Shown: in pieces, positions 28,561-50,599 of the stretch | How the letters are laid out: each line of letters starts with the position of its first letter | How positions within the stretch are numbered: position 1 is the stretch's first letter | IMG/VR virus record: IMGVR_UViG_3300000101_000019 | Location: 1 to 52,835 of that record | Length of the DNA stretch: 52,835 bases | From: a virus | Reading direction: 5' to 3' (one strand) | Position numbers and translations under genes: made by a program | The notes under the pieces: generated by a model | What the model was told of the DNA's origin: nothing | The model's input: the letters and a program-made list of their open reading frames with translations, nothing else | Databases searched by the model: none

Positions 28561-29483
28561 AAGTATTAGCATTTAGGCATCAATTTCAGGGCGCATTAGC
28601 AAATATGCGGTTTAGTCATCCAGAGATAGAGATAGTAGATTGGTTCGACAATCCATATCCAGAAGCAGATCATTACATTACATGTAACATATATTGCGAC
28701 AAGTTTAGGGAAGACCCAGTATTTTCTTTTGTTAAGATGAGTAACAAACCTTATATGATATTTGAGACCGCAGTGTTTAAAAGACAAGCACGTACAGGGG
28801 ATTGGCTAGATTGGCACTGGCGTTTAGGTTGGTGGCACTTGCTAGCACCTGGAAAGTTTAACAATAAGAACTCGCCTCCTGACAGATGGTTAGCACTTAA
28901 ACAAAGACAAGAACTAGAAGTACTGCCCTGGCGCAAACAAGGGGAACATATACTAATACCATTGCAAAAGAATAATGATAGTGTAGTACAAACTATGATG
29001 GACAGATATGGAAGTATGCGTAACTGGCTTAATCGCACAATACAAGATATACGTAAGTACAGTGATCGTCCTATACTAATACGTCCCAGCGCAAAAACAA
29101 ACCCATTAAGCTGGGCAGATGCTGAGAGGCTTCCGAATGTAAGTATAAGTACTACTTATAAAGACAACCCAAGCACAGACGGAACGAAGTTTACAAAAAA
29201 CATAGAGGGCGGGCCGGGATTATTGACAGAGCTAGCAGACGCATGGGCAGTTGTAGGTTATAACACAAGTACACTATTTGAAAGTATAACAGATGGTATA
29301 CCCACAGTAAGTTTAGATCCAGATGCACTCACTGTTCCTTGTAGTATAGAACTAGAGGATATTGAAGATCCTCCCATGAATATAGACCGCGAGCAATGGT
29401 TATATGACATGGCATATATAAGTTGGAGTATGGACGAAATGCAACGTGGTGTTGCATGGGAACATCTAAAAGGAAAGTATTAA
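28557..29483 (+). CDS. GT-B-like glycosyltransferase paralogue 2
   Basis: A 308-residue protein, starting at the ATG that overlaps the radical SAM stop (ATGA). Shared family features are LPWRKQGEHILIPL (about 123-136), TIQDIRKYSDRPILIRPSAK (about 160-179), DAWAVVGYNTSTLFESITDGIP (two pieces, about 230-251) and the C-terminal R-x-Q-W ... AYISWSMDEMQRG block. The N-terminal MKVLAFRHQFQG resembles the first strand of a Rossmann half. No signal peptide. The enzyme activity is inferred from the family layout only. It is followed directly by an overlapping small gene. Confidence 0.5.
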   Translation: MKVLAFRHQFQGALANMRFSHPEIEIVDWFDNPYPEADHYITCNIYCDKFREDPVFSFVKMSNKPYMIFETAVFKRQARTGDWLDWHWRLGWWHLLAPGKFNNKNSPPDRWLALKQRQELEVLPWRKQGEHILIPLQKNNDSVVQTMMDRYGSMRNWLNRTIQDIRKYSDRPILIRPSAKTNPLSWADAERLPNVSISTTYKDNPSTDGTKFTKNIEGGPGLLTELADAWAVVGYNTSTLFESITDGIPTVSLDPDALTVPCSIELEDIEDPPMNIDREQWLYDMAYISWSMDEMQRGVAWEHLKGKY

Positions 29484-29866
29484 TGTTTGGCCCTATTACT
29501 ATACCATATGAATGTGTAATGTTATATAACACTGCGACATTAAAGCCTGGAATAGACTTTGATGATGTTGAATTTGCTATTGCAGAGATGTGTCAACTTG
29601 TAAAAGATACATATCCAGACTTTATTGCTGGACAAGTGTTTAAATATGCTGGCTTTATAAGTGAAGAAGGCAGTGTTGGAGCACCAGGAGAAACTGAAGA
29701 GCATATCGCTATTGTCACATATTGGACTGACTTTGACACTCATGAGCAAAGTCATAAAGATGAAAAGTTTAAAACTGCATTTTCAGGTTTAATGGAATAC
29801 TGTACAGACACTAAAGAACTAGGATACGAGTTGCTCTGGCAGGGCGAGGCGGAGACAGATGTTTGA
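29483..29866 (+). CDS. Small hypothetical protein, possible dimeric alpha/beta-barrel fold
   Basis: A 127-residue protein that starts within the previous stop (TAATG). The C-terminal half, EHIAIVTYWTDFDTHEQSH (about 73-91) through FSGLMEYCTDTKEL to YELLWQGEAE, resembles the strand-helix pattern of antibiotic-biosynthesis monooxygenase-type ferredoxin-like domains. The N-terminal half has FDDVEFAIAEMCQLVKDTYPD. No catalytic residue is certain. It is coupled to a radical SAM gene, overlapping it by eight bases. Confidence 0.5.
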   Translation: MFGPITIPYECVMLYNTATLKPGIDFDDVEFAIAEMCQLVKDTYPDFIAGQVFKYAGFISEEGSVGAPGETEEHIAIVTYWTDFDTHEQSHKDEKFKTAFSGLMEYCTDTKELGYELLWQGEAETDV

Positions 29867-30815
29867 GATAGACAGAGCCGTTATAGAAATAAACGGAGGC
29901 TGTAACTATACTTGTCAGATGTGTCCGCAAACTAATCCTGACGGCTCAACTGGTGCTAGAGGTAAACCCTGGCTTAAAAAAATGCCAATCGCTATGTTCG
30001 AAGAGGCAGTTGCACAATGTGCTGAAGCAGGATTGGGCGTTGTTAATTTAGACGGTAGCGGAGAAGCAACCTTAAACAGAAACATGGCAGAGTATATTGC
30101 TATTGTAAAAAAATACGACGTTAAGTGTTTTATTTTTAGCAATGGATACCGCATGCATGGACAGTTTATGGAAGAATGTGTAGATGCTGGCTTAGACTTT
30201 TACAGGTTTAGTATCATTGGTTATAATAAAGAAACATACAAGACTTGGATGAACGTTGATAACTTTGATAAGGTTATAGAAAATTTACACGCTATGATGG
30301 ACTACAGCAAGGGAACTAACTGCCAAGTAGCCACTTATCATTTAATATTAGATAACGATAACATAGACTATGAAACAGAACAATACCGTAAAATAGTAGA
30401 CGCCGCTGGATGTAATACTGAGATATGGAAAATGCATAACTGGAGTGGCGTATATGATCCTGATTACTCTAGAGAAGGCAGAATCAAAACATGCGGAAGA
30501 CCATTTAGTCCGGACATTGTAATACGTGCAGGTGGCAATGATGGCAAAACAGGTGCAGTTCATCCGTGTTGTCAGGTATTAGGCAATGACAGTGCCGCAG
30601 TACTAGGACATTTTAGTGAAATGACTGTACAAGAAATTATGACAGGCGATTTATACGAAGAGCTTAGAGAACAACACCGCACAGGTAACTATCCAGATTT
30701 TTGTAAAACCTGTGACTTCTTAATTGATGATCCAGAAACCATGGTATACACTAACAGCGGCCGTAGCGAAATGCACATGAACGGAACTAAGTTTAGTCTT
30801 AATGATTACAGATAA
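29859..30815 (+). CDS. Radical SAM protein with SPASM-like C-terminus
   Basis: A 318-residue protein. The iron-sulfur cluster motif is C-x3-C-x2-C at Cys15, Cys19 and Cys22 (NGGCNYTCQMCPQ). The GE-type motif follows in VVNLDGSGEATLN (about 61-73). The C-terminal 100 residues contain CGRPF (about 209), HPCCQVLGN (about 229-237) and FCKTCDFL (about 286-293), fitting auxiliary cluster binding in a SPASM or twitch domain. Such enzymes modify peptides, sugars or cofactors. The next gene encodes an SGNH-type protein, a pairing repeated at 45.7-49.2 kb. The substrate is unknown. Confidence 0.75.
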   Translation: MFEIDRAVIEINGGCNYTCQMCPQTNPDGSTGARGKPWLKKMPIAMFEEAVAQCAEAGLGVVNLDGSGEATLNRNMAEYIAIVKKYDVKCFIFSNGYRMHGQFMEECVDAGLDFYRFSIIGYNKETYKTWMNVDNFDKVIENLHAMMDYSKGTNCQVATYHLILDNDNIDYETEQYRKIVDAAGCNTEIWKMHNWSGVYDPDYSREGRIKTCGRPFSPDIVIRAGGNDGKTGAVHPCCQVLGNDSAAVLGHFSEMTVQEIMTGDLYEELREQHRTGNYPDFCKTCDFLIDDPETMVYTNSGRSEMHMNGTKFSLNDYR

Positions 30816-30836: not shown

Positions 30837-31526
30837 ATGATTATAAATGATTTAGAAATTTATGGAAGACGTAGTAACAAAACAATTGAGTTTATACACA
30901 TGTATACACAAAAACCTCTGGGAATTAAATGTAAATTTAACGAATGGGGGTTCCGCGGCCCAGACTATAATGAGTATGTTGGGCTTCCAGTTAATATATG
31001 TCTTGGAGACAGCTTTACAGTAAACACAGGCGGACCAGTAGAAGATTGCTGGGCAAGCCAATTAGAAGAAATACTGGGCTACCCTACACTCAACTTTGGA
31101 TTAGATGGTGCAGGGAACGATGCTATGAAGCTAATCTACGACCGTGTTATTAATTACTTTGACATACGGAATGTATTTGTTATGTATTCCTTTCTTCATA
31201 GACGACTAATACATGGCTTATTATCACAATCAGCAGAGTCAGACTTAGATATGAACATACGATATTTTGAACAACAATTTATACCAAACGCCCATTATAC
31301 ATTTATACCAGAATGGTGCTGGAGCGACGAAGAAGCTAATTATATTAGAGCAGAGTATCCACAACAATTGCCGGATAGTTATACTCAGTGGCAAGCAACT
31401 GGATACGCAAAAAAGAAACATCGTATACAGGCTTTAGACAAAGATCTATTTAATTCAGACGGTATGCACATGAGTCGAGAACGCAACCAATCAGTGGCAG
31501 AATACTTTGCTAAACTTATATTATAA
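30837..31526 (+). CDS. SGNH/GDSL hydrolase-like protein 1
   Basis: A 229-residue protein. The nucleophile block is VNICLGDSFTVNTGG (Ser in GDSF, about residue 61), the Gly/Asn blocks lie in LNFGLDGAGNDAMKLIYD (about 90-107), and the C-terminal Asp/His pair is in SDGMHMSRERNQSVAEYF (about 207-224). These are the SGNH esterase or O-acyltransferase motifs. I chose the ATG at 30837; an in-frame TTG at 30819 is possible, and the ribosome binding site is poor for both. Family members act on acetyl or acyl groups of glycans. It overlaps the next gene by about 20 bases. Confidence 0.6.
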   Translation: MIINDLEIYGRRSNKTIEFIHMYTQKPLGIKCKFNEWGFRGPDYNEYVGLPVNICLGDSFTVNTGGPVEDCWASQLEEILGYPTLNFGLDGAGNDAMKLIYDRVINYFDIRNVFVMYSFLHRRLIHGLLSQSAESDLDMNIRYFEQQFIPNAHYTFIPEWCWSDEEANYIRAEYPQQLPDSYTQWQATGYAKKKHRIQALDKDLFNSDGMHMSRERNQSVAEYFAKLIL

Positions 31527-36545: not shown

Positions 36546-36725
36546 TTACATACCGTTCTTTTTTTCTTGGATTTCTTTACGGCGTTCTTTAACAAGTTTA
36601 CCAATTTCACCCAAGTGCTTACGGGCACGAGCTGCCGCAGCTTTTACGCCTTTTTCTTCAAAACTAGCATGCTCTTTAACATACCCTTCAACGTGTTCTA
36701 GAATTTTATCATGATGTAATGACAT
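36546..36725 (-). CDS. Small Lys/Ala-rich histone-H1-like protein
   Basis: A 59-residue basic protein. I start it at the ATG at 36725, which has AAAGGAAAA upstream, rather than at the longer open frame. LHHDKILEHVEGYVKEHASF (about 3-22) forms one helix, and the second half, VKAAAARARKHLGEIGKLVK (about 26-45) plus KERRKEIQEKK, a second. The pattern matches small histone-H1-like proteins of marine T4-like phages and would be expected to bind DNA or acidic proteins. It overlaps the upstream fusion gene by 17 bases. Confidence 0.65.
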   Translation of the reverse strand: MSLHHDKILEHVEGYVKEHASFEEKGVKAAAARARKHLGEIGKLVKERRKEIQEKKNGM

Positions 36726-37500
36726 TATTTTTCCTTTCAATGTCTTCTTCAATACAATTTTCACCGTACTGAATCTCAACTATTTTAAGTGGCTGGTCAG
36801 TTTCATTAGCTAGCATATGCCACTTTTCTTCATCAATCCACAACTTGTCATGGGGATTAAACACTCCCCAAAGTTCCAAGTCGCTGCTAACAGGACTAAT
36901 TGTATATACAGTAGCTTGACCTTCAGCAATAAACCAAAGTTCACTACGCTTACGATGCTTCTGCATACTTAGAGATTTACCAGGAGTAACGTCTAGTTCT
37001 TTAACTTTAACATGATTTGTTACTTCGTGTAATACTCTGTACTTCCCCCAAACTCTTTCAGTAGTTGGTTTACTCCATTCTTCCAGGATCCAACTACTAC
37101 TGTTTGCTTTGTTACTTCCCCCGACGCCAAATTCAAATTTTACAGGACTATTTCCGCTGTACACAATTTCTTCAGGAGTATTATCTACTCCACGGTCGCC
37201 ACCATTTGCAAAAATAACAACGTCTTCAGGATTCTTTTCGCCCAAAACTTTAAAAATGGCTTGGGTAGCAGTTCCATCGTCATCGTTAAACTCAATAACC
37301 TGATCAACCATTTTTAAATTTTCCAGCACTGCCTTACGCTCATTAAACGGCATAAAAGGACGTCCTTTTTTACGTTGTAACCAAGTATCACTGTTAAGAC
37401 CAACAACAAGTTTGTCTCCAAGTGTCCTTGAAACTTTAAGATAACTAATATGTCCACTATGCAAGGGGTCGAATCCCCCAGTAGCTAAAACTATTTTCAT
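36709..37500 (-). CDS. Nucleotidyltransferase-cupin fusion
   Basis: A 263-residue two-domain protein. The N-terminal domain has ATGGFDPLHSGHISYLKVSR (about 6-25), with the H-x-G-H nucleotidyltransferase motif of the HldE/TagD cytidylyltransferase superfamily, and VVGLNSDTWL (about 32-41). The C-terminal domain (about 135-263) is a cupin like the phosphomannose isomerase half of ManC: SLSMQKHRKRSELWFIAEGQ, an IDEEKWHMLAN strand, and the terminal VEIQYGENCIEEDIER signature. The fusion probably activates a sugar or polyol phosphate. AAGGAG precedes the ATG. This is the only nucleotide-activating enzyme I recognise in the cassette. Confidence 0.78.
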   Translation of the reverse strand: MKIVLATGGFDPLHSGHISYLKVSRTLGDKLVVGLNSDTWLQRKKGRPFMPFNERKAVLENLKMVDQVIEFNDDDGTATQAIFKVLGEKNPEDVVIFANGGDRGVDNTPEEIVYSGNSPVKFEFGVGGSNKANSSSWILEEWSKPTTERVWGKYRVLHEVTNHVKVKELDVTPGKSLSMQKHRKRSELWFIAEGQATVYTISPVSSDLELWGVFNPHDKLWIDEEKWHMLANETDQPLKIVEIQYGENCIEEDIERKNNVITS

Positions 37501-44574: not shown

Positions 44575-45627
44575 ATGAACTACGTTCTTATTAAGTCAGG
44601 TACATACCAAAAGTTGCAAGTTGCTGACAAGGTATTCCCTGTAATCAAGGAATTTAAGACTGGCGCCCGTGGATCTTACATCACTGTGGATGGTACTATC
44701 CTTGGTAGCGACTATGCTCGCCCAGTTCGTATTAAATGCACAAAAGCAGACATTGTAGATGTTGAGCAAGATGCATATGATCGTCAACTTTCCGCAGAAG
44801 CAGTTAATAAAGATATTAAGACTGCTGGCGATTTAGACAGCTTTACTACAGAACAAGATGAAAAGCGGATGCAAGAAATTGAAGACCGTTTTGAAATCTT
44901 AAATGAAATGACTGGCGCTCTTAAGAGTGGCGATATCCGTGCAATGATTGTAACGGGCCCTCCAGGTGTTGGCAAGAGTTACGGTGTTACACAGACTCTT
45001 GAAGAGCAAAGCATCTTTGAAGATGTTGCTAGTCACAAACGCAAGTTTGAGGTTGTCAAAGGTGCAATGACTGCACTGGGCTTGTATGCTAAATTGTATG
45101 AGTTTAGCGAAAAAGGCAGCGTACTAGTATTTGACGATTGCGATAGTGTGCTAATGGACGATTTAGCCCTTAACATTCTTAAAGCCGCATTGGACTCAGG
45201 CAAAAAGCGCAAGATCTTTTGGAACGCAGATTCATCTAAGTTACGTAGTGAAGGTATTCCTAATAATTTTGAGTTTAGAGGTACTGCTTGCTTTATTACT
45301 AACATTAAGTTTGAAAACGTACGGAGCCGCCGTTTGCAGGATCACTTAGAAGCTCTGCAATCACGTTGCCATTATCTGGATCTTACACTGGATACGATGC
45401 GTGACAAGTATCTTCGCATTAAACAGATTGCACGTACTGGTAAATTATTTGGTTCTGACTACGGATTTACTCCAGAGCAAGAGCAAGAAGTCCTGGACTT
45501 CATGTTTGAGAATCGTAACAAGCTCCGTGAAATGAGCCTGCGTATGGCCCTTAAAGTTGCAGATCTCAAGAAGATCTCAGACAAGTGGCGTGTACTTGCA
45601 GAATCAACTTGCATGAAACGAGCATAA
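44575..45627 (+). CDS. AAA+ family ATPase
   Basis: A 350-residue protein. Walker A is GPPGVGKS (128-135), Walker B VLVFDDCDSVL (about 182-192), and a sensor-like CFITNIKFENVRSRRL region (about 239-254) contains an Arg pair. The N-terminal 60 residues form a separate beta-rich part, and a DEKRMQEIEDRF helix precedes the ATPase. The C-terminal part is helical. It is more like a DnaA/Cdc48-type AAA+ protein than the clamp loader. It may remodel a replication or host complex. The strong ribosome binding site predicts high expression. Confidence 0.78.
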   Translation: MNYVLIKSGTYQKLQVADKVFPVIKEFKTGARGSYITVDGTILGSDYARPVRIKCTKADIVDVEQDAYDRQLSAEAVNKDIKTAGDLDSFTTEQDEKRMQEIEDRFEILNEMTGALKSGDIRAMIVTGPPGVGKSYGVTQTLEEQSIFEDVASHKRKFEVVKGAMTALGLYAKLYEFSEKGSVLVFDDCDSVLMDDLALNILKAALDSGKKRKIFWNADSSKLRSEGIPNNFEFRGTACFITNIKFENVRSRRLQDHLEALQSRCHYLDLTLDTMRDKYLRIKQIARTGKLFGSDYGFTPEQEQEVLDFMFENRNKLREMSLRMALKVADLKKISDKWRVLAESTCMKRA

Positions 45628-45637
45628 AGATACGTTA

Positions 45638-45678
45638 GCTGTACCACTTGCTCCTCCTCCTCTCCTCCAAGGTACAGC
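45638..45678 (+). other. Hairpin with pyrimidine-rich loop
   Basis: GCTGTACC (45638-45645) and GGTACAGC (45671-45678) form a perfect eight-base stem. The 25-base loop is almost all C and T with repeated CTCC, complementary to Shine-Dalgarno sequences. It lies ten bases after the ATPase stop. Confidence 0.5.
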
Positions 45679-45686
45679 CAAACGCA

Positions 45687-45716
45687 GGCGGTGTGTTTAG
45701 AAATAGACACACCGCC
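45687..45716 (+). terminator. Strong hairpin after the AAA+ gene
   Basis: A 13-base stem (45687-45699 with 45704-45716, one G-U pair) closes a GAAA tetraloop. It is the strongest hairpin in the window. There is no T tract after it, so it may protect the 3' end of the message or need a factor to terminate. Confidence 0.65.
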
Positions 45717-45739
45717 GTCCTTATGTTAGAATATATATA

Positions 45740-46369
45740 ATGAAAAAAGTAGCTCTAGGCGATAGTTTTACATACGGAGAGGAATTAGCTGATAGGAATA
45801 ATGCATATCCAGCATTGCTTGGATATGAAAACTGGGGATTAAAAGGTGCCAGTAATGAATATATCTTTCGTAAGGCTGTTGAACTAGCACCAAAAGCAGA
45901 TAATATGATAATAGCCTGGAGTGACAGCGGGCGTTATGAGCTATACACTAATAAAAAAATAAATATATCTAACAGATACATTCAACATAACGGCATAGTA
46001 CAAGTTAATCCAGGATGGACCCAACTAAGTCCATGGTTTAAAGAATTGTACGGCAACTATAGTGATCAAGAACACCAGTTCTTAAAAACAATATCTTACA
46101 TGGTTGCAATTCAAGACGTACTAATGGTTAATAACGTAGATTATATACAAACATCTAGCTTTGGTAACCAAGATTTATTTGTAAAGTACCAGGACAGTGA
46201 TTTAATTAAGCCCTGGATTGCTAGGCTAGATAAGACTAAGTATATAGACTATCCCCATGGATTAGTAGAATGGGCATACGGAACACCGCAAGGACCAGCT
46301 GGACATCCACTTGAGGAAGGACATCAACAGATTGCAGAACAAATCAGAAAATATCTTACAGATCCCTGA
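45740..46369 (+). CDS. SGNH/GDSL hydrolase-like protein 2
   Basis: A 209-residue protein. KKVALGDSFTYGEEL (about 2-16) has the nucleophile Ser9, YENWGLKGASNEYIFRKA (about 30-47) the Gly/Asn blocks, and GPAGHPLEEGHQQIAEQI (about 187-204) the C-terminal His. A matching nearby Asp is less certain. Family members deacylate or acylate glycans or lipids. It overlaps the radical SAM gene that follows. Compared with SGNH protein 3 (48547) it shares the MIIAWSDSGRYELYT-type block after the second strand (there IVWTEHARYELPY). Confidence 0.65.
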   Translation: MKKVALGDSFTYGEELADRNNAYPALLGYENWGLKGASNEYIFRKAVELAPKADNMIIAWSDSGRYELYTNKKINISNRYIQHNGIVQVNPGWTQLSPWFKELYGNYSDQEHQFLKTISYMVAIQDVLMVNNVDYIQTSSFGNQDLFVKYQDSDLIKPWIARLDKTKYIDYPHGLVEWAYGTPQGPAGHPLEEGHQQIAEQIRKYLTDP

Positions 46370-47507
46370 GTTTAATTCTGAGGCTGAGTGTGAGCAATGG
46401 TTAAAAGACAATCCTTACTACTGCGCCAAGCCATTTTACAGTAGAGAGCTTACACAAACCAATGAATCTATTTGGTGTTGTCACTGGGGTAGTCCTTTTA
46501 AGACAATAGATGAACTTAACAGTTACGATAAAACTGTTTTTAAAAAAGATCAGCCTATATCAGATTGCAGTTATTGTTATAAGATTGAAGAGTCTGGAAC
46601 TACTAGTGAAAGATTTACGGACAGTTTATATGCACTGGTACATCAACGAGATTGGCTTGACAACACAGACGTTAAAAGTTTAAAACTCAGGTTAGATAAT
46701 GTATGTAACGTATCTTGTCAAATGTGTAATGCAAACAATAGCTCGTTGTATGATAAAGTAACAGGCGGTAATGTAGGCATCATTGGATTAAATGATCAAA
46801 TTTGGAAAGCAACTTTAGAAGACTTAAAATCAGCAGATATATTATCATTACTAGGCGGTGAAACTTTCCTCTCGCCTAAAACAGAAATTATTTTAAATGC
46901 AGAGCATAGTCTTAAACAAGTTCAGTTTCAAACAAATTGCACTGTTTATAAAAAAAATATTCTAGATTACCTTAACAGAGTACCCAGTGTAGATTTTGGT
47001 TTAAGCATTGATGGTGTAGGAGTAGTTAACGAGTACACTAGATGGCCCAGTAAGTGGGATAAAATTAAACGTAACGTAGAACGATTCTTCCAGTACAATT
47101 TTAACTTTATAGGTTCTCCGGTAGTAAACATTTATACTGCCCTATATTTAGATGAACTAGTAGAGTTTTACTATCCATATATGAAAGATGGTGTGGACAT
47201 TATTATTACTCCGTATTTTTGTATAGAGCCTGAGTGGATGGATATGAGTATCTTACCTGCAAATGCATTAAATGCAATTGAACAGAGATCCATTAAGTTG
47301 TTGGATCATCCAGTTATAACTGAATTTCCATTACAAACAACAGGATTGGTGGAAAGTTTAAATAGTATTATTAACGTTTGTCAAAACTCATTGCCTAATC
47401 CTGACACCTGGGATGAGTTTGTAGTTAATAATGCTATGTGGGATAAAATCCAAGATACTAGTTTTAAAGATAGTTTACCAGAGTTATATAGTTTAATATA
47501 CGCATGA
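46332..47507 (+). CDS. Radical SAM protein (twitch/SPASM type) 1
   Basis: A protein of about 391 residues. I place the start at the TTG at 46332, which has AGGAAGGA about nine bases upstream; a TTG at 46311 would extend it by seven residues. The iron-sulfur motif DNVCNVSCQMCNANNSS gives C-x3-C-x2-C near residue 130, followed by LSLLGGETFLSPK and a FGLSIDGVG barrel strand. The N-terminal 100 residues contain several Cys (YYCAKPF, IWCCHWG, DCSYCYK). Its length and N-terminal Cys region differ from the rSAM at 29859. The stop overlaps the next start by four bases. Confidence 0.72.
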   Translation: MQNKSENILQIPEFNSEAECEQWLKDNPYYCAKPFYSRELTQTNESIWCCHWGSPFKTIDELNSYDKTVFKKDQPISDCSYCYKIEESGTTSERFTDSLYALVHQRDWLDNTDVKSLKLRLDNVCNVSCQMCNANNSSLYDKVTGGNVGIIGLNDQIWKATLEDLKSADILSLLGGETFLSPKTEIILNAEHSLKQVQFQTNCTVYKKNILDYLNRVPSVDFGLSIDGVGVVNEYTRWPSKWDKIKRNVERFFQYNFNFIGSPVVNIYTALYLDELVEFYYPYMKDGVDIIITPYFCIEPEWMDMSILPANALNAIEQRSIKLLDHPVITEFPLQTTGLVESLNSIINVCQNSLPNPDTWDEFVVNNAMWDKIQDTSFKDSLPELYSLIYA

Positions 47508-48550
47508 AATTTTTAAACATACCAGATATTCAGCAAGTAAACGTAGAGATATCTAGTCATTGCAATGCCGCTTGTCCATTATGCACTCGTAATTATAACG
47601 GGTACGGAGTAAGAGATAACTTTCCTTTACGAGATATGACACCAGCTGAATTTAAACATTTGTTAGATCCAGTGTTACCTAACTCAAACATTCTTATACA
47701 TTTTTGCGGAACGTATGGTGACCCTGCAGCTAATAAACACTGTCTAGACATATTAGAGTATGCATACTCAAGAAATCCAAAACTAAGACTAATGTTGAGC
47801 AGTAATGCTAGTATGAAAACACCAGCATGGTGGGCAAAATTTGGTAAGTTTCCAGATCTTAAAATTGAGTTTGCACTAGACGGACTTGCAGATACTCACA
47901 GCATTTATAGGCAGAATACAGATTGGCACAAGGTCATTGAAAACGCTACGGCATTTATTGAAGCAGGCGGGTATGCTATATGGCAGTTTATATCATTTGA
48001 ACATAATAAACATCAACTTGAAGAATGTAAGATTCTTTCTAAAAAACTAGGGTTCTCTGAGTTTAAAAGTTTTGACGATAACAGAGCAAATGCCCTAGCT
48101 TTTACTCCTGACGGAACACCGTTTGTGCTGGGAGATCAACCTCAAAATATTATTACAGCTAACGAGTTTGTAGCTCAAGAAAAGTATCTACAAAAACAGT
48201 ATGAACTAAACTATCAGTTTCAGCAGGAGCGTGGCCTTAAGGTAGACAGCATTGACTGTTATAGCCAAAAAGGAAATATCTATGTTGCTGTTAATGGTGA
48301 TATATGGCCTTGTTGCTGGTTGGGTGGTACATTTCCTATGACCAGTGACAGTGACAACGGATGGCAACTTAAAAAACTTCCCCTTGTGCTTAATGGTTTA
48401 GAAAATAGTTTAGAAGAAGTTATTGCTAGTTGGAATTATATCAGTGACACCTGGAATACTGAAGAGCCATTAAGCACCTGTGTTAAGATGTGTGGAAAAT
48501 GTAATACTTACTCTGGCATGCAACCTGTTGGAGTTAGGTCAATATTATGA
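47504..48550 (+). CDS. Radical SAM protein with SPASM domain 2
   Basis: A 348-residue protein. The iron-sulfur motif is C-x3-C-x2-C at Cys20, Cys24 and Cys27 (SSHCNAACPLCTRN). LIHFCGTYGDPAAN (about 64-77) is the glycine-rich motif; FALDGLADTHSIYRQNT (about 124-140) is a barrel strand with the polar residues usual for substrate contact. The C-terminal SPASM region has IDCYSQKGNIYVAVNGDIW (about 247-265), CCWLGG (267-272) and VKMCGKCNTYSG (about 328-339). SPASM enzymes typically modify peptides. No precursor peptide gene is obvious next to it. Stops and starts overlap on both sides. Confidence 0.75.
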   Translation: MKFLNIPDIQQVNVEISSHCNAACPLCTRNYNGYGVRDNFPLRDMTPAEFKHLLDPVLPNSNILIHFCGTYGDPAANKHCLDILEYAYSRNPKLRLMLSSNASMKTPAWWAKFGKFPDLKIEFALDGLADTHSIYRQNTDWHKVIENATAFIEAGGYAIWQFISFEHNKHQLEECKILSKKLGFSEFKSFDDNRANALAFTPDGTPFVLGDQPQNIITANEFVAQEKYLQKQYELNYQFQQERGLKVDSIDCYSQKGNIYVAVNGDIWPCCWLGGTFPMTSDSDNGWQLKKLPLVLNGLENSLEEVIASWNYISDTWNTEEPLSTCVKMCGKCNTYSGMQPVGVRSIL

Positions 48551-49167
48551 AACTTTTAACTAACGGCTGTAGTTTTACACAGGGCATATATGATAACTTT
48601 GAAGAGAAGAACGCCTGGCCCTATCAGTTAGGAAAACTACTAGACTGGGATGTGGCAAATCTAGCTGAAGGAGGCGGCAGCAATGCTAGAATATTCCGTA
48701 CTACCATGGAATACCTTTTAGATAATACACCAGACTATGCAGCTATTGTGTGGACAGAACATGCAAGGTATGAGCTTCCTTATCATACTGGAGATATCAT
48801 ACGTGTTATGCATAGTATGGCATTGCCTGAGCAAGACGAAACTGTAGATGATATTCCTGAACTTAGAGAGTTTTGGTACAAGCATTGTCATAATGAACTT
48901 GCATCTCAGCAAAGAACAGTGTATTATATAAGATGTATAAAGATGATACTAGAGGGTAAGTCTATTCCATATACTATGAGTTCTAGTTTTAATATAGATA
49001 TCAATGAACCCTTTAGCAATTGGTTATGTCCGGGATCTAGTATGCAAACAGAACTAGCTCACTTACCTAAAGCAGATATCCATGGTCATCCTGGTATAGA
49101 AGGACAAACATTGTGGGCAAATTTAATGTTAGAGAGTATAAATGAAACCTTGCGTACTGCACGTTAA
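48547..49167 (+). CDS. SGNH/GDSL hydrolase-like protein 3
   Basis: A 206-residue protein. The nucleophile block is LLTNGCSFTQGIYD (Ser9; GCS instead of GDS), VANLAEGGGSNARIFRTT (about 36-53) holds the Gly/Asn blocks, and KADIHGHPGIEGQTLWANL (about 175-193) the Asp/His pair. The replacement of the usual Asp by Cys in GDS is common in O-acyltransferase-like SGNH proteins. The start overlaps the radical SAM stop and its end overlaps UvsW by 26 bases. Likely glycan or lipid esterase or transferase; substrate unknown. Confidence 0.65.
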   Translation: MKLLTNGCSFTQGIYDNFEEKNAWPYQLGKLLDWDVANLAEGGGSNARIFRTTMEYLLDNTPDYAAIVWTEHARYELPYHTGDIIRVMHSMALPEQDETVDDIPELREFWYKHCHNELASQQRTVYYIRCIKMILEGKSIPYTMSSSFNIDINEPFSNWLCPGSSMQTELAHLPKADIHGHPGIEGQTLWANLMLESINETLRTAR

Positions 49168-50599
49168 AGATGAAGTAAACGTCAAGATAGAAGGTTTAGA
49201 TTTGGATACCAGGCGTAAGCTGAGTAACCGGTTTAAGTATGACATTCCTGGTGCTAGATATATGCCGGCAGTTAGATTAGGTCGCTGGGACGGCAAGGTT
49301 GCTTTTTTCCAAATGGGAGGCAGTACTTACATTAACTTGTTACCAGAAATTCTTCCTGTATTGCAGAGTGACGGATATGATGTTACGTTAAACGACTTAC
49401 GTGATTATCAGATAGACCTGGATTTAGAGCCTGTAACAGCAGATAGTTATGCTGAGTTTTCATGGCCTGACAAACATCCAGCCGCAGGGCAACCTATTAT
49501 GTTGCGTGACTATCAGGTAGATGTTATTAATAACTTCCTAAAGAATCCACAGAGCATGCAGGAAGTAGCAACAGGTGCTGGTAAGACACTTATTACAGCC
49601 GTGCTAAGTCACAGATGCGAAGCACATGGCAGAACAGTTATTATTGTTCCTAACAAGAGCCTGGTAACGCAAACCGAAGAAGACTACATTAACATGGGAT
49701 TAGATGTTGGCGTATATTATGGTGACCGCAAGGAGTTTGGCAAAACACACACCATTTGTACCTGGCAGAGTTTAAACATACTGTTAAAAAATACCAAGAA
49801 TCAGAGAGCAGAGATTACTATTGGAGACTTCCTAGAAGATGTAGTTTGCATTATGGTAGACGAAGTACACATGGCAAAAGCAGATGCACTCAAGACATTG
49901 TTAACAGGAGTAATGAGTCATATACCTGTACGCTGGGGATTAACTGGGACAATACCCAAGGAAGATTTCGAAAAGCAAAGTTTGTTTTGTAGCATTGGAC
50001 CAGTAACCGGCAGCATCAGTGCTAAAGAGTTGCAAGACAAAGGAGTTCTTGCAAATTGCGAAGTGAATGTGTTACAATTAATAGATGTAAAAGAGTATAC
50101 AAACTATCAGAGTGAACTTAAATACTTACTGGAAGCTACTGATAGATTAGATTACATTGGTGGTGTAATAGATAATATTAAAGATACCGGTAATACGCTG
50201 GTACTAGTGGACAGAATAAATGCAGGAAAAGAATTACAGAAAAGGATTCCGTCTTCCGTTTTTGTTAGCGGTGGAACGAAGGCACAAGAACGCAAGGATC
50301 ATTATGATGAGGTGGCTGACGCAACTGGTAAAGTTATTATTGCTACTTATGGTGTTGCCAGTGTTGGTATTAATATTCCCCGTATATTTAATCTGGTACT
50401 GTTGGAACCGGGAAAAAGTTTCGTCCGTGTTATCCAAAGTATCGGAAGAGGAATTAGAAAAGCAGAAGACAAAGACTTTGTCCAGATATGGGATGTTACA
50501 TCGACGTGTAGGTTCGCGAAGAGGCACCTTACCAAAAGGAAAGCATTCTATAAAGAAGCAAACTACCCCTTTACGGTTCAAAAAGTAGACTGGACTTAA
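49142..50599 (+). CDS. uvsW: UvsW-type superfamily 2 helicase
   Basis: A 485-residue helicase (T4 UvsW is 503 aa). The N-terminal 110 residues (DTRRKLSNRFKYDIPGARYM; VRLGRWDGKVAFFQ) form the UvsW substrate-binding domain. The helicase core has LRDYQVDVINNF (Q-motif, about 121-132), Walker A ATGAGKT (about 143-149), DEVH box MVDEVHMAKA (about 239-248), motif III WGLTGTIP (about 264-271), and motif VI VIQSIGRGIRKAED (about 431-444). It unwinds branched DNA and R-loops, promoting the switch to recombination-dependent replication. The start ATG overlaps the SGNH gene's 3' end. Confidence 0.92.
   Translation: MKPCVLHVKDEVNVKIEGLDLDTRRKLSNRFKYDIPGARYMPAVRLGRWDGKVAFFQMGGSTYINLLPEILPVLQSDGYDVTLNDLRDYQIDLDLEPVTADSYAEFSWPDKHPAAGQPIMLRDYQVDVINNFLKNPQSMQEVATGAGKTLITAVLSHRCEAHGRTVIIVPNKSLVTQTEEDYINMGLDVGVYYGDRKEFGKTHTICTWQSLNILLKNTKNQRAEITIGDFLEDVVCIMVDEVHMAKADALKTLLTGVMSHIPVRWGLTGTIPKEDFEKQSLFCSIGPVTGSISAKELQDKGVLANCEVNVLQLIDVKEYTNYQSELKYLLEATDRLDYIGGVIDNIKDTGNTLVLVDRINAGKELQKRIPSSVFVSGGTKAQERKDHYDEVADATGKVIIATYGVASVGINIPRIFNLVLLEPGKSFVRVIQSIGRGIRKAEDKDFVQIWDVTSTCRFAKRHLTKRKAFYKEANYPFTVQKVDWT

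What the first reader, a model, noticed from the sequence alone, without database searches (positions are those of the whole stretch)
45740..49167. SGNH / radical SAM / radical SAM / SGNH operon, echoed at 29.9-31.5 kb
Two SGNH proteins flank two radical SAM proteins with four-base overlaps; separately, a radical SAM gene at 29859 is followed by an SGNH gene at 30837. The repeated pairing implies that the two enzyme types act on the same product, for instance a carbon-modified then acylated sugar or peptide. I know of no described phage system with this set.
Basis: partly seen in the sequence, partly recalled or inferred. Interest (0 to 1): 0.72.

Follow-up and report, generated by a model that had tools for sequence, protein, structure and literature searches.

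The report
Phage SGNH–radical SAM enzyme cassette
A marine virus of bacteria carries a small swappable set of genes that pairs two kinds of chemical-modifying enzyme next to a DNA-repair gene; the pairing recurs in related viruses, often beside sugar-building genes, so it probably helps decorate a sugar, but what it makes is unknown.

Summary
The four genes are real: SGNH-fold protein, two radical SAM (rSAM) enzymes, second SGNH-fold protein, in a T4-like marine phage fragment. Two of three junctions have the four-base overlap. The set is an accessory insert between two core genes, an AAA+ ATPase and the UvsW helicase. Thirteen other contigs carry the second rSAM in this slot, always beside at least one SGNH gene; the first rSAM is in none of them. 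A strain 96% identical downstream has a different SGNH gene and a GIY-YIG homing endonuclease there instead. The pairing is not general: the 29.9-kb echo holds in 3 of 80 relatives, and in 79 UvsW-chosen loci the two gene types do not associate (p=0.73). But loci chosen by this SGNH subfamily have an rSAM within three genes in 30 of 80, against 6 of 79 controls (biased seeds). Neighbours there include a carbamoyltransferase and NDP-sugar epimerases. The SGNH family keeps Ser and His but lacks the block-III Asn. Best reading: an exchangeable cassette for sugar decoration; substrate undemonstrated. It is a variant of the rSAM modules published for CP220 and pelagimyophages.

The parts
45740..46369 (+). 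SGNHa: SGNH-fold protein, cytosolic (block I GDSF at residues 7-10)
   Evidence: Same profile family as SGNHb; Ser and His conserved; no acid at -2 to -4 of the His
46311..47507 (+). RSa: N-terminal twitch radical SAM enzyme; start is TTG at 46311 or 46332; extra gene of this genome
   Evidence: PF04055 33.4 bits, cut-off 29.5; NF033640 188.5 bits, cut-off 170; absent from the cassettes of 13 relatives
47504..48550 (+). RSb: radical SAM enzyme with C-terminal SPASM/twitch-like cysteines, core of the cassette
   Evidence: PF04055 38.4 bits; SPASM below cut-off (17.5 against 21.5); CX3CX2C invariant in 13 sequences
48547..49167 (+). SGNHb: SGNH-fold protein (DUF6071), paralogue of SGNHa
   Evidence: DUF6071 over cut-off; model pLDDT 79; Z 17.4 to TesA
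44575..45627 (+). AAA+ ATPase (phrog_1250), left border of the slot, core gene
   Evidence: same position in relatives
45687..45716 (+). Strong hairpin between the AAA gene and SGNHa; RNA fold of 45675-45745 z-score -6.35; no T-run, so not a canonical terminator
   Evidence: not in the list of terminator-like sites
49142..50599 (+). UvsW helicase, right border of the slot, core gene
29859..30815 (+). RSc: radical SAM/SPASM enzyme of the echo, a widespread phage gene
30819..31526 (+). SGNHc: SGNH-family protein of the echo (ATG at 30837)
   Evidence: pairing in 3 of 80 RSc loci

Best explanation
The four genes are an exchangeable accessory (moron) cassette in a hot spot between an AAA+ ATPase gene and uvsW of a T4-like marine phage lineage. 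Its conserved core is one rSAM enzyme (RSb) with one or two cytosolic SGNH-fold proteins; RSa is an addition in this genome. Proposed mechanism: the rSAM enzymes use SAM and Fe-S clusters to make a radical change at carbon on a small precursor, most likely a nucleotide sugar or glycan intermediate; the SGNH proteins, with Ser-His chemistry, add or remove an acyl or similar group on that product; glycosyltransferases elsewhere in the genome place it on the virion or host surface. Shown: gene content, slot, recurrence, SGNH fold with conserved Ser/His, a different slot content in a near-identical strain, a homing-type endonuclease gene in the slot of relatives. Inferred: catalysis, shared product, sugar substrate, and movement driven by the endonuclease.
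For: 13 of 13 contigs with RSb in the slot keep an adjacent SGNH: S-R-S 4, S-R 4, R-S 5. Four of these (L001, L002, L010, L184) were found by RSb or UvsW queries alone. SGNHa/b-type loci: rSAM within three genes in 30 of 80 against 6 of 79 controls. L182 is 96.1% identical from base 49138 but holds another SGNHa and a GIY-YIG/NUMOD3 gene in the slot. T4 segE (GIY-YIG) sits at inh/uvsW and targets uvsW (PMC2988022, passages). Neighbours of SGNH+rSAM elsewhere: carbamoyltransferase and APS-kinase-like gene in L363, two NDP-sugar epimerases in L411, nucleotide-sugar dehydrogenase in L290, annotated aminotransferase and carbamoyltransferase in Pelagibacter phage Mosig. The window carries GT61, HldE-like nucleotidyltransferase-cupin and methyltransferase genes.
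Against: No association of SGNH and rSAM in UvsW-chosen loci with a broad SGNH profile (Fisher p=0.73). SGNH directly next to rSAM is rarer than shuffles in RSb-family loci (3 against 11.0). RSc echo in 3 of 80. No sugar gene lies inside the window cassette. Fold matches of RSb tie peptide and sugar enzymes. The 30-of-80 test used seeds mostly from rSAM loci. L119 has an RSb relative near a UvsW-like ORF without SGNH.
Confidence: 0.45

Rival explanations
1. Hitch-hiking only: SGNH and rSAM genes are independent morons that land in the same hot spot beside uvsW, and their contiguity says nothing about a shared product.
For: SGNH occurs without rSAM in the slot (L182, L183, L185, L190, L191) and RSa-type rSAM without SGNH (L243, L248); SGNH genes are common there anyway, 54 of 978 ORFs in 79 UvsW loci; no association overall.
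Against: RSb in the slot has an adjacent SGNH in 13 of 13 contigs, and SGNH and rSAM are again close in loci away from uvsW: L359-L365 type, L396/L397, L411/L413/L414, L382.
Confidence: 0.3
2. Peptide (RiPP-like) or protein modification: RSa/RSb cross-link or epimerise a peptide or a virion protein and SGNH trims or acylates it.
For: The RSb model matches RiPP maturases SuiB (Z 17.8) and SkfB (17.1) as well as any; the rSAM proteins show weak hits to several peptide-maturase models, all far below cut-off.
Against: No precursor-like ORF on the coding strand in the gap before SGNHa except a 30-aa TTG ORF over the hairpin; within the operon genes overlap; recurrent neighbours are sugar-type. BlsE (17.2) and DesII (17.1) tie with the maturases.
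Confidence: 0.15
3. Modification of phage DNA or nucleotides: the cassette sits among replication and recombination genes because it makes a modified base.
For: Position beside uvsW; phage glycosyltransferases can glycosylate DNA (stated in passages of PMC12619734).
Against: No thymidylate synthase/dCMP hydroxymethylase family (PF00303) match in 0 of 5 long relative records, all of them fragments; the position is explained by a homing hot spot.
Confidence: 0.05

Closest known systems
Interchangeable radical SAM modules of Campylobacter phages CP220 and CPt10 (PMC2853527, passages read)
   Same: Several adjacent rSAM genes in a T4-like phage, described as an interchangeable module of non-essential genes; RSb has relatives there (25% identity to CP220 and F379 proteins)
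   Different: Those clusters have a putative glycine amidinotransferase and more rSAM genes; no SGNH-family hit in the F379 stretch that I fetched (L100); different genomic address
Radical SAM cassettes in the host recognition cluster of pelagimyophages (PMC7029224, passages read)
   Same: Variable rSAM cassettes in marine T4-like phages in a genome with LPS-type sugar genes
   Different: They lie in the HRC between VrlC and gp14, not beside uvsW; the passages seen do not mention SGNH
NF033640 twitch domain-containing radical SAM proteins
   Same: RSa passes the curated cut-off (188.5 against 170 bits)
   Different: RSb (37.4 bits) and RSc (29.9 bits) do not pass it; function of the family is not known to me
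SGNH/GDSL hydrolases (TesA, carbohydrate esterases)
   Same: Fold (Z 17.4 to TesA), catalytic Ser and His
   Different: Block-III Asn replaced by Thr/Ser/Pro with an Arg four residues on; Asp at -3 of the His in only 26 of 97
T4 segE, free-standing GIY-YIG endonuclease at inh/uvsW (PMC2988022, passages read)
   Same: A GIY-YIG gene directly upstream of uvsW in L182 and L001
   Different: The window has none in the slot; homing of the cassette was not shown

Membership tests
SGNH hydrolase | SGNH three-layer fold | tested here: met
   SGNHb model Z 17.4, rmsd 2.5, 156 aligned to TesA; SGNHa and SGNHc by profile only
SGNH hydrolase | nucleophile Ser (block I) and catalytic His (block V) | tested here: met
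   Ser 97 of 97, His 97 of 97 aligned
SGNH hydrolase | block III Asn of the oxyanion hole | tested here: not met
   No conserved Asn after strand 64-69; Thr 74, Ser 13, Pro 11 of 98, Arg74 in 96 of 98. Hence called SGNH-fold proteins, not filed as canonical SGNH hydrolases
SGNH hydrolase | Asp three residues before the His | tested here: not met
   26 of 97; absent in SGNHa and SGNHb, present in SGNHc
Radical SAM superfamily | PF04055 over cut-off and CX3CX2C | tested here: met
   CX3CX2C of RSa and RSc read directly
NF033640 twitch rSAM | score over the curated cut-off | tested here: met
   RSa only: 188.5 against 170; RSb 37.4 and RSc 29.9 fail
CP220-type rSAM module | several rSAM genes with an amidinotransferase | tested here: inconclusive
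   Two adjacent rSAM genes; no amidinotransferase among the window proteins scanned, but not all proteins were scanned and Pfam missed suspected ones elsewhere
RiPP biosynthesis cluster | precursor peptide gene next to the maturase | tested here: not met
   Only a 30-aa TTG ORF over the hairpin upstream; a distant precursor is not excluded
Surface-sugar decoration pathway | enzymes act on a nucleotide sugar or glycan | not testable with these tools
   Needs biochemistry; only neighbour evidence here

The most novel reading that the evidence does not exclude
Phages carry exchangeable editing cassettes in which radical SAM enzymes change the carbon skeleton of a sugar and a new SGNH-fold class (Ser-His with an invariant Arg instead of the block-III Asn) transfers a group onto the product. 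The result is an undescribed sugar whose genes are swapped between phages by homing at uvsW and change the virion or host surface.
Probability: 0.18. Interest if true: 0.75.

Novelty: new variant of a known kind. Interest (0 to 1): 0.5.

Why it matters
Large numbers of rSAM genes in marine and other T4-like phages are an open puzzle (12 in one environmental T4-like genome, PMC5332604; 11 and 12 in CP220/CPt10, PMC2853527) with no known product. A two- or three-gene unit (RSb plus SGNH) is far smaller than those arrays and so is a tractable handle on the product. The strain pair window/L182 and the cassette-free slots of cultured relatives show it behaves as an exchangeable unit. If the sugar reading holds, it would tie phage rSAM genes to surface change and competition between phages.

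Tried and rejected
Rejected: that SGNH and rSAM associate as superfamilies in these phages. In 79 UvsW-chosen loci there was no association; in 78 RSc loci there are 3 SGNH genes among 1,391 ORFs; of 78 bacterial RSb-family loci only 3 have an SGNH. Rejected: S-R-R-S as the conserved unit, since RSa is absent from the cassettes of 13 relatives. Considered and lowered: RiPP pathway and DNA modification.

Led nowhere: RSa in viral contigs (no relative confirmed); SGNHa, SGNHb and SGNHc against phage records (no match); the broad SGNH alignment as scan query; a second control scan with the nucleotidyltransferase-cupin gene (only 5 loci), so UvsW loci are the only control; a search for an SGNH-rSAM fusion ORF in my loci (none). 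The last was prompted by a structure match to a 602-aa viral protein named Radical_SAM domain containing protein (A0A6J5LTW5, TMq 0.58), which I could not verify. The fold of RSb does not tell peptide from sugar enzymes (model pLDDT 66). Coordinates of models were not at hand, so catalytic distances were not measured.

Limits: ORFs in loci were called mechanically (60 aa or more, overlap filter; 90 aa or more for counts). Labels come from my own profiles; 14 of 125 SGNH calls lack a block-I match, partly because truncated. Contig ends cut neighbourhoods. UvsW control loci were not clustered. Recalled from the look of the sequence, with no family hit: glycosyltransferase-like for window genes 19823, 20695, 28512, 31507, 32319, 34322; kinase-like for 33237; amidinotransferase-like in L364 and L396; HNH-like for the 290-aa gene in L344.
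Full report
What is there. The window is a 52.8-kb stretch of a 55.6-kb virus record with T4-like genes: tail sheath, ATP-dependent ligase and UvsW helicase by Pfam, terminase by match to phage records. Terminase and UvsW are closest among phage records to the jumbo phages of PA5oct type, Phosso and Atu_ph07, at 50-55% identity. The four ORFs and the echo pair exist as stated, except that SGNHa and RSa overlap by 38 or 59 bases from TTG starts, not by four. All three rSAM proteins pass the Pfam cut-off and RSa passes NF033640. The SGNH identity of SGNHb rests on fold, Z 17.4 to TesA; SGNHa, b and c converge in one profile. pN/pS of 0.18-0.37 for RSb, SGNHa and SGNHb shows constraint.

The slot. 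The genes sit between an AAA+ ATPase (phrog_1250) and UvsW. In relatives the same slot holds SGNHa-RSb-SGNHb (L001, L002, L009, L010), SGNHa-RSb (L184, L366, L415, L417) or RSb-SGNHb (L013, L014, L344, L345, L346): 13 contigs besides the window, each with an SGNH next to RSb (L010 and L366 do not reach the AAA gene). One contig, L119, has an RSb relative three genes from a UvsW-like ORF without SGNH. RSa is in none of the 13 cassettes; RSa-type rSAM occurs in the slot without SGNH in L243 and L248. SGNH occurs without rSAM in L182, L183, L185, L190 and L191. Of 55 slots with both borders in view, 16 were empty, 9 held SGNH, 7 rSAM, 5 both; four of the 55 came from RSb or SGNHb queries. Cultured relatives PAC2 and Atu_ph07 have UvsW followed by homologues of window genes 50634, 51411 and 51845, and Phosso by homologues of 51411 and 51845; no SGNH or rSAM hit lies in those three stretches.

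Exchange. L182 matches the window at 96.1% over 3,481 bases from 49138, four bases before the UvsW start; upstream only short matches remain, and the slot holds another SGNHa and a GIY-YIG/NUMOD3 gene. L012 matches at 99.5% from 48865 inside SGNHb, so the cassette form also circulates. L001 has the same kind of GIY-YIG gene between SGNHb and UvsW. T4 segE is the published parallel: GIY-YIG, insertion site inh/uvsW, target uvsW (PMC2988022, passages). That such an endonuclease moves the cassette is inference.

Is the pairing more than chance? Against: 79 loci chosen by UvsW hold 54 SGNH and 12 rSAM among 978 ORFs; 5 loci have both, Fisher p=0.73. In 78 RSb-family viral loci 22 have an SGNH, but SGNH is directly next to rSAM 3 times against 11.0 in shuffles, and within three genes 22 against 20.4. 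RSc has an SGNH directly downstream in 3 of 80 loci and within three genes in 5 of 80. For: with a profile of the SGNHa/b kind (8 sequences), 80 loci were fetched. The matched SGNH has an rSAM within three genes in 30 of 80 and adjacent in 15 of 80; the UvsW control gives 6 of 79 and 3 of 79. Clustered at 70% identity it is 16 of 40 against 6 of 79, p=3.8e-5 (control not clustered). Six of the eight seeds came from loci that also hold rSAM, so this test leans in favour. Counting any SGNH of the locus, 34 of 80 have an rSAM within three genes. These loci fall into separate arrangements: the uvsW slot; arrays of twitch rSAM genes, a ~360-aa companion, one to three SGNH genes and a ~490-aa gene (L359, L362-L365, L370, L373, L377, L386, L389, L393, L418, some cut by contig ends), which is a carbamoyltransferase by Pfam in the one tested (L363); RSb beside a divergent SGNHb in L396 and L397; SGNH between two NDP-sugar epimerases with rSAM on both sides in L411, and like layouts in L413 and L414; SGNH, one gene, then RSb in L382.

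Chemistry. Across 98 SGNH sequences Ser9 is kept in 97 of 97 aligned, His181 in 97 of 97, Arg74 in 96 of 98, Gly43 in 89 of 98; where the block-III Asn is expected there is Thr (74), Ser (13) or Pro (11). Asp at -3 of the His is present in 26 of 97, and 43 of 97 have no acid at -2 to -4. So these are probably enzymes with Ser-His chemistry and a changed oxyanion site; hydrolase or transferase cannot be told. Block I starts at residue 7 in SGNHa and SGNHb, which leaves no room for a signal peptide, so they act in the cytosol (direct reading). RSb has CX3CX2C and conserved C-terminal cysteines. Its model (pLDDT 66) matches SuiB 17.8, BlsE 17.2, SkfB 17.1 and DesII 17.1, tied within one Z unit: peptide and sugar enzymes alike.

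Why sugar. In relatives recurrent or nearby genes are a carbamoyltransferase, an APS-kinase-like gene and NDP-sugar epimerases and a nucleotide-sugar dehydrogenase. In cultured Pelagibacter phage Mosig a member of the SGNH family (profile E 2.9e-34), annotated hypothetical, lies beside a gene annotated UDP-4-amino-4-deoxy-L-arabinose-oxoglutarate aminotransferase, between rSAM genes and followed by an annotated carbamoyltransferase. The window carries an HldE-type nucleotidyltransferase fused to a mannose-6-phosphate isomerase cupin, a GT61 gene and methyltransferases; in relatives homologues of some of these lie directly left of the AAA gene. No precursor peptide is present in the operon. None of this proves the substrate.

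What is known. Swappable rSAM-rich modules in phages are published: CP220 and CPt10 with 11 and 12 rSAM proteins, an interchangeable region with five rSAM genes, and amidinotransferase (PMC2853527, passages); rSAM cassettes in the host recognition cluster of pelagimyophages (PMC7029224, passages); 12 rSAM genes in a T4-like environmental genome (PMC5332604, passages). Searches for SGNH or GDSL with radical SAM and phage found no description of the pairing, within an open-access library only. So this is a variant of a known kind of accessory module, with an SGNH partner and a uvsW address that I did not find described.

Noticed in passing
L286 and L290 (contig NZHE01000012.1, binned as Rickettsiales MED657): An array of about 17 distinct rSAM ORFs in one contig by my count, with a double-rSAM ORF of 735 aa followed directly by an SGNH gene, a nucleotide-sugar dehydrogenase and a relative of window gene 34322. 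It may be a phage contig in a bacterial bin.
   Followed up: partly
L363:4320-5399, L121:11978-12784, L199:5969-6874: Companion genes of about 270-360 aa beside rSAM arrays; no Pfam match for L363 and L199 and no NCBIfam match for L363. L199 has a look-alike in the uvsW slot.
   Followed up: partly
L344, L345, L346 (uvsW region): uvsW appears as two ORFs with a 290-aa gene between them; possible homing endonuclease inside uvsW, judged by eye only.
   Followed up: no
window 29423-29866: A 147-aa gene before RSc is missing from L022, which is otherwise 94-98% identical on both sides.
   Followed up: no
window 36709-37500: One protein fuses an HldE/RfaE-type nucleotidyltransferase with a mannose-6-phosphate isomerase cupin.
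   Followed up: no
window 29859-30815: RSc is a very conserved and widespread marine phage rSAM/SPASM protein (357 relatives confirmed in one scan; 63-85% identical across 10 aligned), often with a ~275-aa gene directly upstream.
   Followed up: partly
window 45687-45716: Strong perfect-looking hairpin between the AAA gene and SGNHa, fold z-score -6.35, without a T-run.
   Followed up: partly
BFVD entry A0A6J5LTW5: A 602-aa viral protein named Radical_SAM domain containing protein matches the SGNHb model (TMq 0.58, E 2.7e-5); possibly a natural SGNH-rSAM fusion.
   Followed up: partly
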